The notes under the pieces were generated by a model, which saw nothing but the letters and a program-made list of their open reading frames with translations, was not told the DNA's origin and did not search any database. A DNA stretch of 64,000 nucleotides, taken from contig DVOQ01000016.1 of assembly GCA_018713485.1 (NCBI GenBank), positions 1-64,000 on the forward strand, in the 5' to 3' direction. The DNA is from Candidatus Avisuccinivibrio pullicola (lineage in GTDB: Bacteria > Pseudomonadota > Gammaproteobacteria > Enterobacterales > Succinivibrionaceae). Shown here in pieces: positions 50,704 through 52,994 of the stretch (position 1 is the stretch's first letter; each line of letters starts with the position of its first letter). A program made the position numbers and the translations under genes.

Positions 50704-51075
50704 ATGGCAAAAACCGGTGTCGGCGGCTTAAGACGCATTTATAACGCTTTCTTCTATTCTTTAAAGGGCCTCAGGGCCGGCCTTAAATACGAGGCGGCCG
50801 TGCGCCAGGAACTCTGTTTAGCCGTGCTCATGACGGCCCTCGCCGCTGTCATTGCCGACAGTCTGACGCTCTTTCTGATCCTGTTCATCCTGCCCTGGCT
50901 GACGCTGGCCTTTGAGCTGGCCAATTCCGCCATTGAGGCGGTGGTTGACCGTATCGGCGATGAATATCATGAACTTTCGGGGCGTGCCAAGGATCTGGGT
51001 TCGGCCTGCGTCTTTGTGCTTTTGTGCCTTGATGTTATCGCCTACGCCGCGGCCTTATGGCGCTATTACAGCTAA
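50704..51075 (+). CDS. dgkA: diacylglycerol kinase
   Basis: FFYSLKGLRAGLKYEAAVRQE, FELANSAIEAVVDRIG. Confidence 0.93.
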   Translation: MAKTGVGGLRRIYNAFFYSLKGLRAGLKYEAAVRQELCLAVLMTALAAVIADSLTLFLILFILPWLTLAFELANSAIEAVVDRIGDEYHELSGRAKDLGSACVFVLLCLDVIAYAAALWRYYS

Positions 51076-51617
51076 TGCCGGATCCTTCCCTGCCCTCGCA
51101 GATCCTTAAGCGCGACGACAGCTATTACATGCGCCTTGCCATTGCGCAGGCCCACCGCGCCGAGGAGCTCAATGAAGTACCCGTGGGTGCGGTGCTCGTC
51201 GCTCCGTCCGGGGAGATCATCGCCTGTGCCTGCAATGAGACCATCTCGCGGCACGATCCTACCGCGCACGCCGAGATCCTCTGTCTCAGGGCAGCGGGAG
51301 CGCGTATTAACAATTACCGGCTGTTAGATCTCACCCTTTACGTGACGCTTGAGCCCTGCGTGATGTGCGCCATGGCGCTGATCCACGCCCGCATTGGACG
51401 TCTGGTCTTTGGCACCTGTGATTTAAAGACCGGGGCCTGCGGCTCGGTTTTTGACATACTCTCCGATCCGCGGCATAACCACCATCTCACGGTAACTCAG
51501 GGGGTTCTAAAAGAGGAATGCGCAAAACAGCTGTCCTCCTTCTTTGCCCGCCGGCGCGCCGAGATCCGTAAGGCGCGCGGGCTTAAAAAAGCCTCTGAGG
51601 GCGCAGCGGGCGTTTAA
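51057..51617 (+). CDS. tadA: tRNA-adenosine deaminase
   Basis: NEVPVGAVLV, PTAHAEILCLRAAG, TLEPCVMCAMALIHARI; overlaps dgkA; exact start uncertain. Confidence 0.93.
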   Translation: MALLQLMPDPSLPSQILKRDDSYYMRLAIAQAHRAEELNEVPVGAVLVAPSGEIIACACNETISRHDPTAHAEILCLRAAGARINNYRLLDLTLYVTLEPCVMCAMALIHARIGRLVFGTCDLKTGACGSVFDILSDPRHNHHLTVTQGVLKEECAKQLSSFFARRRAEIRKARGLKKASEGAAGV

Positions 51618-51779: not shown

Positions 51780-52994
51780 GTGAAAAATCGCAGTTCCATC
51801 CGCACGGAGATCAATCTCTTTTACCGTAATAAAGTCAATGGATGGCTCACCTCGCATGTTAAGGAGAAAAAGGATCCTCCGGCGGATTTTCCCGTGTCTC
51901 TGTACTTAGGCGCCCCCACGCTGGACGAGGAAGTGAAAAAGAATAAGGATGCCTTCCTGCGTTTCTGCAAGGACTGGCAGGAGCCGCTGATAGCCGGTCA
52001 CGTCGATTTCCTCGAAAAGAGCTACGACGGGATCGGCACGGTACAGGTGCCCATTCATCTCGTTTTTGACAAGCCCTCGGAGGTCGCTACCTGGGCCGGT
52101 AATCTCGTTGAGTACAATTCCGCCGTGGAGCGCCTCGATGTCATCGCCAAGGAACTGCCTGAGCTCGTGGACAGCGCCCTGAGCGTCATTTCGAGTATCT
52201 CCAACCTCGAGGCGAGCGATTTCTACCGCTTCACTCTCGTGTGCAAGTGGCTTCTGGATAACCGCAAGAGCCACGCGCTCATCCGCTCCATCCCCGTGCG
52301 CGGCGTGGATACGCGCTGGTTTGAGATTAACCGGCATCTGCTCCTTGATTTCCTGCGCGAAAAGCTCGACTTAAATCCCGTGCGCAAGGATCTGCTGCAG
52401 TTAGGTCTCATCCCGCCGCCTTCCCTCGTGACGCTGCGTGTCCTTGATCATGTACTGCGCGGCCGCGCCGGAGGCATGAGCTATTTCTCCACCACCTGCG
52501 CCGATCTGGAGAAACTGAATCTCAAGCCCATCCGGGTCATCTTCATGGATAATGTGCCCACTGTGCTGTCCCTGCCTGACATGCCGGGGACGGTGATCAT
52601 CATCACTCCCGTCACGGGACTTGAGGAGATCTGCAAGGTCTCGTGGGTGGCTAACGCCCGCTGCCAGTACTTTGGCTCCATCGATCTCAATTCCTTTGCC
52701 AAGCTCCACAATCTGCGTCTCTTCCTGCCTAAGATCGAGTCCGTGCTTATGGATGAGGAGACCTTCTTTGCGCACCGCGATCTGTGGACTTATGATGACG
52801 TGGGCACCTTCAGCGGCTATTTAGGGGCCTTAAACGAGCGCGAGGCCTGGTTCTACCGTGCTCTCGTCGACGGCTCTTACGGTTTTGGTGTCAGACTCTC
52901 CCAGGAGCGGCTGCCCCTTGACTGCGTCTTCAAGGCCCTGGGTATCAAGGGCGATGATTTAGACGACGCAGAGCCCGAGCCCCTCGAGCCTTAA
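51780..52994 (+). CDS. orphan JetD-like DUF3322/DUF2220 protein
   Basis: PVRGVDTRWFEINRHLLLDFL; RVIFMDNVPTVLSLPDMPGTVIIITP; CQYFGSIDLNSFAKLHNLRLFLPKIESVLMDEETFFAHRDLW; GTG start with AAGGAGAA upstream. Confidence 0.65.
   Translation: MKNRSSIRTEINLFYRNKVNGWLTSHVKEKKDPPADFPVSLYLGAPTLDEEVKKNKDAFLRFCKDWQEPLIAGHVDFLEKSYDGIGTVQVPIHLVFDKPSEVATWAGNLVEYNSAVERLDVIAKELPELVDSALSVISSISNLEASDFYRFTLVCKWLLDNRKSHALIRSIPVRGVDTRWFEINRHLLLDFLREKLDLNPVRKDLLQLGLIPPPSLVTLRVLDHVLRGRAGGMSYFSTTCADLEKLNLKPIRVIFMDNVPTVLSLPDMPGTVIIITPVTGLEEICKVSWVANARCQYFGSIDLNSFAKLHNLRLFLPKIESVLMDEETFFAHRDLWTYDDVGTFSGYLGALNEREAWFYRALVDGSYGFGVRLSQERLPLDCVFKALGIKGDDLDDAEPEPLEP

What the first reader, a model, noticed from the sequence alone, without database searches (positions are those of the whole stretch)
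51780..52994. Orphan JetD-like (Wadjet DUF3322/DUF2220) protein with no JetABC
The C-terminal half matches the DUF2220 Toprim pattern of JetD (FMDNVPTVLSLP ~ IVENxxTFLxLP; YFGSIDLNSFAKLHNLRLFLPKIESVLMDEETFFAH ~ YWGDIDxxGFxILxxLRxxxPxxxSLLMDxxTLxxH). The N-terminal half resembles DUF3322. Neighbours are tadA and a secreted protein; no SMC-like JetC, JetA or JetB is present in the window. Wadjet normally needs JetABCD to cleave plasmid DNA, so a solitary JetD-like protein implies a repurposed or remnant defence function, or partners in trans.
Basis: partly seen in the sequence, partly recalled or inferred. Interest (0 to 1): 0.78.

Follow-up and report, generated by a model that had tools for sequence, protein, structure and literature searches.

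The report
Nuclease-dead orphan JetD kept as core gene
The gene encodes a relative of JetD, the DNA-cutting part of the Wadjet anti-plasmid machine, that has lost its cutting residues but is kept intact and under strong selection across a whole group of gut bacteria, even where the rest of the machine is missing, so a defence enzyme seems to have become a non-cutting housekeeping protein of unknown job.

Summary
Window 51780-52994 encodes a 404-aa DUF3322 + JetD_C protein (Pfam 1e-24 and 5e-27; PADLOC JetD 3e-71). Its predicted fold (pLDDT 90) matches the solved MksG and JetD structures. No JetABC is in the window and no intact one was found in the genome; only a decayed jetC/jetD remnant lies between recF and gyrB.

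This is not a one-off remnant. It belongs to a distinct orthologous group (monophyletic, support 1.0) present in 38 of 40 genomes of seven Succinivibrionaceae genera; the two exceptions also lack tadA in their assemblies. It was found nowhere else. It usually sits just downstream of tadA. All 38 have lost the metal-binding Asp essential in MksG (D279 to S/G/N), while 16 of 16 genuine family JetDs keep it; other catalytic residues are eroded too. Yet dN/dS is mostly 0.006-0.16, and the gene stays constrained in genomes without detectable JetABC, including two Succinivibrio dextrinosolvens isolates.

Best reading: a nuclease-dead, JetABC-independent, domesticated JetD/MksG paralogue. Its molecular function is inferred, not shown. 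Wadjet modulator and trans-acting JetABC partner are the main rivals.

The parts
51780..52994 (+). jetD* : nuclease-dead JetD/MksG-like protein, 404 aa, GTG start
   Evidence: Pfam PF11795 + PF09983, PADLOC JetD, AF2 model and PDB fold match, orthologues
51810..52355 (+). DUF3322 (CAP-like N-terminal) domain, residues 11-192
   Evidence: PF11795 E 9.6e-25
52404..52937 (+). JetD_C / Toprim domain, residues 209-386
   Evidence: PF09983
52548..52550 (+). residue 257: Asp in place of the metal-binding Glu (MksG E236)
   Evidence: D in 30 and E in 8 of 38 orthologues; E in 16/16 JetD
52677..52679 (+). residue 300: Ser in place of the metal-binding Asp (MksG D279)
   Evidence: never Asp in 38 orthologues; Asp in 16/16 JetD; D279A impairs MksG (PMC10123090)
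52899..52901 (+). residue 374: Ser in place of a proposed nucleophile Glu (MksG E349)
   Evidence: Glu in 2/38 orthologues, 16/16 JetD
52905..52907 (+). residue 376: retained Glu (MksG E351), invariant in orthologues and JetD
51057..51617 (+). tadA, tRNA adenosine deaminase; conserved upstream neighbour
   Evidence: Pfam deaminase; near the gene in 25 of the 38 loci by clustering, immediately upstream in 21, plus one in-frame TadA-JetD* reading frame
50704..51075 (+). dgkA, diacylglycerol kinase; conserved next neighbour upstream
   Evidence: PF01219, 23 loci

Best explanation
jetD* is a domesticated, catalytically dead paralogue of the Wadjet nuclease JetD/MksG. Shown here: one monophyletic group of JetD-like proteins, typically encoded beside tadA, occurs throughout seven Succinivibrionaceae genera; it lost the essential Toprim metal ligand and most other cleavage residues, yet stayed intact and strongly constrained, and it persists in genomes with no detectable JetABC. 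Inferred from JetD/MksG structures: it forms a Toprim-mediated dimer with two CAP-like arms and acts by binding rather than cutting, engaging either DNA or, more likely given its acidic drift and loss of the conserved DNA-contact Lys, a protein partner. Its role would be a housekeeping, chromosome-related one that does not need the JetABC motor. The partner and the pathway are unknown.
For: Domain and fold: pLDDT 90; MksG 8b7f E 6e-33; 8b7f Foldseek 4e-23; JetD 7til 8e-17; topo VI-A 5e-4. Distinct orthologous group: 554-686 bits for sampled members against at most 158 bits for any other JetD in 395 genomes of the order; monophyletic, support 1.0, stem 1.4 substitutions per site. Core-gene distribution: 38/40 genomes in seven genera, 0/18 in the other seven; the two without it also lack a proper TadA match. 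Genera g1, g2 and g4 form supported clades. Catalytic loss: D279 position never Asp in 38, K166 position never Lys, E349 position Glu in 2, against 16/16 kept in JetD; D279A and E236A drastically impair MksG (PMC10123090). Selection: dN/dS 0.006-0.16 in nearly all of the 40 closest pairs, both domains; 0.026-0.054 among G030, G032 and G040, none of which has a JetA match. JetABC independence: carriers G030 (97% complete), G032 (99%) and G037 (96%) have no JetA and no SbcC_Walker_B match; contig names and lengths identify G030 and G032 as S. dextrinosolvens DSM 3072 and ACV-10. Acidic drift: core net charge -10 against -2, tails mean 62 aa against 4.
Against: No biochemical data. Invariant R169 and E376 (MksG R156, E351) are kept, so some DNA contact or chemistry could remain. 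Loss of nuclease activity is inferred from alignment. JetABC absence is by HMM in draft assemblies. Constraint in JetABC-less lineages could partly predate JetABC loss. The acidic surface is a composition average, not a mapped structure. The model is a monomer (pTM 0.62), so dimerisation is by homology only.
Confidence: 0.5

Rival explanations
1. Wadjet modulator: dead JetD* mixes with active JetD (Toprim heterodimers) or occupies the JetD site on JetABC, so it damps plasmid cleavage or protects the cell's own chromosome and plasmids.
For: Most carriers also have JetABC, and often a catalytic JetD. The Toprim dimer interface is the expected contact (PMC10586767). Catalytic residues are lost while the fold is kept.
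Against: The gene is equally present and constrained where no JetABC or active JetD is found (G030, G032, G037, G038, G040, G041). It is far diverged from the JetD of its genus (28% identity to G018 JetD), which makes heterodimers less likely.
Confidence: 0.2
2. Trans-acting partner of JetABC: a dispersed complex in which JetABC plus dead JetD* works as a chromosomal loop extruder (condensin) rather than a nuclease.
For: Genus g2 has JetABC operons with no jetD beside them, at a recurrent locus (L096, L097, L102). G003 and G010 (A. succiniciproducens DSM 6400) have JetABC and only the dead JetD. No canonical MukB was found in the family.
Against: Ten carriers lack JetA or have only fragments of it. 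Most g2 genomes also hold a catalytically intact JetD elsewhere, so their JetABC may use that one.
Confidence: 0.14
3. Still an active nuclease that uses an altered metal site (D257, D302, retained E376).
For: E351 and R156 equivalents are invariant. The Glu to Asp change at 257 is conservative, and the second acid of DxD is Asp or Glu in 34 of 38.
Against: The residue matching D279, whose Ala mutant is drastically impaired in MksG, is S, G or N in all 38. Y258 and E349 equivalents are also eroded.
Confidence: 0.08
4. RNA-linked role with TadA (operon partner in tRNA biology).
For: tadA adjacency in many loci, a TadA-JetD* continuous reading frame in L069, and a YciO/Sua5-like gene (my reading of the sequence) next downstream in 11 loci of genus g11.
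Against: Gaps of 75-533 bp to tadA, linkage to tadA lost in genus g2 while the gene is kept, no RNA-binding signature.
Confidence: 0.06
5. Decaying remnant of a Wadjet operon with no function.
For: The same genome has a truly decaying jetC/jetD remnant between recF and gyrB.
Against: 38/38 copies have intact reading frames, dN/dS far below 1, seven genera, linked to tadA.
Confidence: 0.02

Closest known systems
MksG of Corynebacterium glutamicum (MksBEFG, type I Wadjet)
   Same: Two-domain fold, best solved-structure match by sequence (6e-33) and fold (4e-23); R156 and E351 equivalents kept
   Different: MksG is an active Mn2+/Mg2+-dependent nuclease encoded with MksBEF; jetD* lacks the D279, E349, Y258 and K166 equivalents and has no MksBEF operon
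JetD of Wadjet JetABCD (P. aeruginosa 7til, E. coli 8q72)
   Same: DUF3322 plus Toprim JetD_C architecture
   Different: JetD is the cleavage subunit fired by JetABC; jetD* is solitary, catalytically degenerate, core-genome and vertically inherited
[quoted passage not shown]
   Same: A piece of a Wadjet system turned to a chromosomal, non-defence role (proposed)
   Different: Mirror image: there JetABC is kept and JetD lost; here JetD is kept without JetABC
Topoisomerase VI A subunit / Spo11
   Same: Toprim plus CAP-like arrangement (Foldseek E 5e-4)
   Different: JetD/MksG lack the catalytic-Tyr 5Y-CAP function, and the Toprim metal ligands are lost here

Membership tests
JetD / MksG protein family (DUF3322 + JetD_C fold) | DUF3322 and JetD_C domains, same fold as solved JetD/MksG | tested here: met
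JetD / MksG nuclease | Toprim metal ligands (E236, D279 of MksG) present | tested here: not met
   D279 position is Ser here and never Asp in 38 orthologues; E236 position is Asp here
JetD / MksG nuclease | DNA cleavage activity | not testable with these tools
   needs purified protein
Wadjet (JetABCD) system | jetABC in operon or nearby | tested here: not met
   none in the window or at the orthologous loci
Wadjet (JetABCD) system | JetABC elsewhere in the same genome | tested here: not met
   only a decayed remnant in this 82% complete genome; relatives vary
Wadjet (JetABCD) system | Plasmid restriction | not testable with these tools
   needs a transformation or conjugation assay

The most novel reading that the evidence does not exclude
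A defence nuclease was domesticated once in an ancestor of seven Succinivibrionaceae genera: JetD lost cleavage chemistry, separated from its SMC motor and became a conserved, JetABC-independent core protein with a new chromosome-related or regulatory function.
Probability: 0.55. Interest if true: 0.78.

Novelty: new variant of a known kind. Interest (0 to 1): 0.6.

Why it matters
JetD is studied only as the cutting arm of Wadjet. A JetD lineage that lost cutting and its motor but is under housekeeping-level constraint suggests that the effector can be exapted by itself, the reverse of the route proposed for MksBEF. It gives a direct test of what a JetD dimer can do without JetABC. It also warns that annotation pipelines call such genes Wadjet JetD (PADLOC does so here at 3e-71) although they are probably not anti-plasmid nucleases.

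Tried and rejected
Dispersed ordinary Wadjet in this genome: rejected, no JetA; the only other JetD copy is frameshifted. Pseudogene or remnant for the window gene: rejected by dN/dS and intact frames. Recent mobile acquisition: not supported; no phage match, plasmid matches all at or below 35.4% identity and, where annotated, mostly ordinary JetD/DUF3322 proteins. A divergent MukB partner: the weak MukB hits with 1500-1650 aa frames that were examined proved to be JetC of type I Wadjet. Promoter/terminator scan: near chance level and uninformative. JetB IFDR motif check in operons with and without jetD: uninformative. NCBIfam: no model matched the protein or a genuine JetD. Literature: no paper found linking Succinivibrionaceae with Wadjet or MukB, nor describing an orphan JetD.

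Full report
Observation. It scores 9.6e-25 to DUF3322 (residues 11-192), 4.9e-27 to JetD_C (209-386) and 2.8e-71 to PADLOC JetD. A profile of its orthologues finds MksG (8b7f, 6e-33) and two JetD structures in the PDB. An AlphaFold model built from 32 orthologues (mean pLDDT 90, pTM 0.62) matches MksG (Foldseek E 4e-23), P. aeruginosa JetD (8e-17) and topoisomerase VI-A (5e-4). The homology claim is beyond doubt.

Own genome. The window lies in a draft genome of 2.44 Mb, 82% complete. No JetA is detectable; the only SbcC_Walker_B protein is SbcC next to an SbcD-like gene; SMC_N over the cut-off gives RecF, a 566-aa RecN-like frame and one ABC protein in the window. A second JetD_C hit lies between recF and gyrB. 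There a fragment like the end of a TnpB-type protein (my reading of the translation, not tested), two joined pieces of JetC (residues 452-517 and 1105-1183 of the G018 protein) and a JetD split over two frames remain. This is a decayed Wadjet copy. In G018, the same genus, the same recF-gyrB interval holds an intact JetA-JetB-JetC without jetD. The window gene is a different protein: 24-28% identical to the JetDs of its genus.

Orthologues. JetD_C hits in 58 genomes of the family fall into two classes. In the alignment they separate cleanly: one class keeps VEN...GD-x-D, the other never has the first Asp of DxD. The second class is one orthologous group: 43-71% identical to the window protein, 554-686 bits with its own profile while the best other JetD among 395 genomes of the order gives 158 bits, and monophyletic with support 1.0 on a long stem of 1.4 substitutions per site. 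It occurs in 38 of 40 genomes of seven genera and in none of 18 genomes of the other seven. The two missing cases, G015 and G036, also lack a proper TadA match (only a weak match in a longer frame), so an assembly gap is likely. Three genera with several members form supported clades; g3 is a clade with weak support and g11 is interrupted only by the single g7 sequence. Named carriers include Anaerobiospirillum succiniciproducens DSM 6400, Succinivibrio dextrinosolvens DSM 3072 and ACV-10, and S. faecicola. Outside the family the pattern scan found only ordinary JetD-like proteins, mainly of Brevibacterium, with GDLD intact.

Locus. Clustering places tadA near the gene in 25 of the 38 loci, immediately upstream in 21, usually with dgkA before it. 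In one genome (L069) tadA and jetD* form a single open frame with a plausible ribosome site before the jetD* start. In genus g2 the gene is not beside tadA but is kept in all ten genomes. G026, of a genus without the gene, has the same macroglobulin-like, dgkA, tadA order with nothing JetD-like after tadA, consistent with insertion next to tadA in an ancestor, or with loss there. Downstream neighbours vary by genus.

Catalytic residues. Mutagenesis of MksG showed that E236A and D279A drastically impair nuclease activity, that Y258A reduces it strongly, and that E349/E351 are candidate nucleophiles; R156 and K166 were proposed DNA contacts (PMC10123090). On a joint alignment the D279 position is S/N/G in 38 of 38 jetD* and Asp in 16 of 16 JetD; the E236 position is Asp in 30 and Glu in 8; the Y258 position is eroded; the E349 position is Glu in 2 of 38 against 16 of 16; the K166 position is never Lys against 16 of 16. 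The R156 and E351 positions are invariant in both. The core is more acidic (net -10 against -2, mostly from the N-terminal domain) and many members carry acidic tails, up to 189 aa, that JetD lacks. Loss of cleavage is therefore strongly indicated but not measured.

Selection. Nei-Gojobori dN/dS in the 40 usable pairs with lowest dN is 0.006-0.16, with one at 0.216, and both domains are constrained. Among G030, G032 and G040, which have no JetA or SbcC_Walker_B match, it is 0.026-0.054. In all, nine carriers have no JetA and one (G016) has only fragments. G030 and G032 are isolates 97 and 99% complete. Constraint without JetABC is the main argument that the function does not need the Wadjet motor. 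The caveat is that drafts can hide genes and that JetABC may have been lost recently.

Mechanism. Shown: homology, distribution, catalytic erosion, constraint, dispensability of detectable JetABC. Inferred from established JetD/MksG structures: Toprim dimer with CAP-like arms (PMC10586767). My choice is a non-cutting dimer working by binding, more likely to a protein partner than as a general DNA binder, because the conserved DNA-contact Lys is gone and the protein has become acidic. I give this about 0.5. The modulator of Wadjet (0.2) and trans partner of JetABC (0.14) readings are alive because most carriers do have JetABC, and in genus g2 JetABC lacks its own adjacent jetD.

Known and new. 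[quoted passage not shown] this would be the reverse. I found no description of a solitary or catalytically dead JetD family in the papers held; subscription papers and preprints were not searchable. The protein is a member of the JetD fold family, but not of the JetD nucleases or the Wadjet system by the features tested.

Noticed in passing
L098:2549-8632 (G018) and L005:12030-14046 (own genome): A type I Wadjet JetABC operon without jetD is inserted between recF and gyrB in G018; the window's genome has a decayed jetC/jetD remnant at the same place.
   Followed up: partly
L096:4900-12101, L097:4253-11854, L102:3948-10997: Genus g2 (Anaerobiospirillum) has JetABC with unusually long JetC (about 1480-1610 aa) and no adjacent jetD, at a locus shared by the three examined; a catalytically intact JetD with a large insertion (690-1019 aa frames, L082, L083) lies elsewhere in most g2 genomes.
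   Followed up: partly
L080:2230-3417 (G012): A second kind of solitary JetD, catalytically intact by motif, in a 96% complete genome without detectable JetA.
   Followed up: no
family of 58 genomes: No canonical MukB (only weak hits, those examined being JetC) and no SMC hinge match in any genome of the family; the hinge model is weak in this order, so absence of a canonical condensin is a lead, not a result.
   Followed up: partly
L069 (G041), reverse strand, 675-aa frame: tadA and jetD* share one uninterrupted reading frame, with a ribosome-site-like GGAG before the jetD* GTG.
   Followed up: no
L084-L091: A second, divergent JetABCD lineage (JetA only about 23-25% identical to the other) is common in the family.
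   Followed up: no
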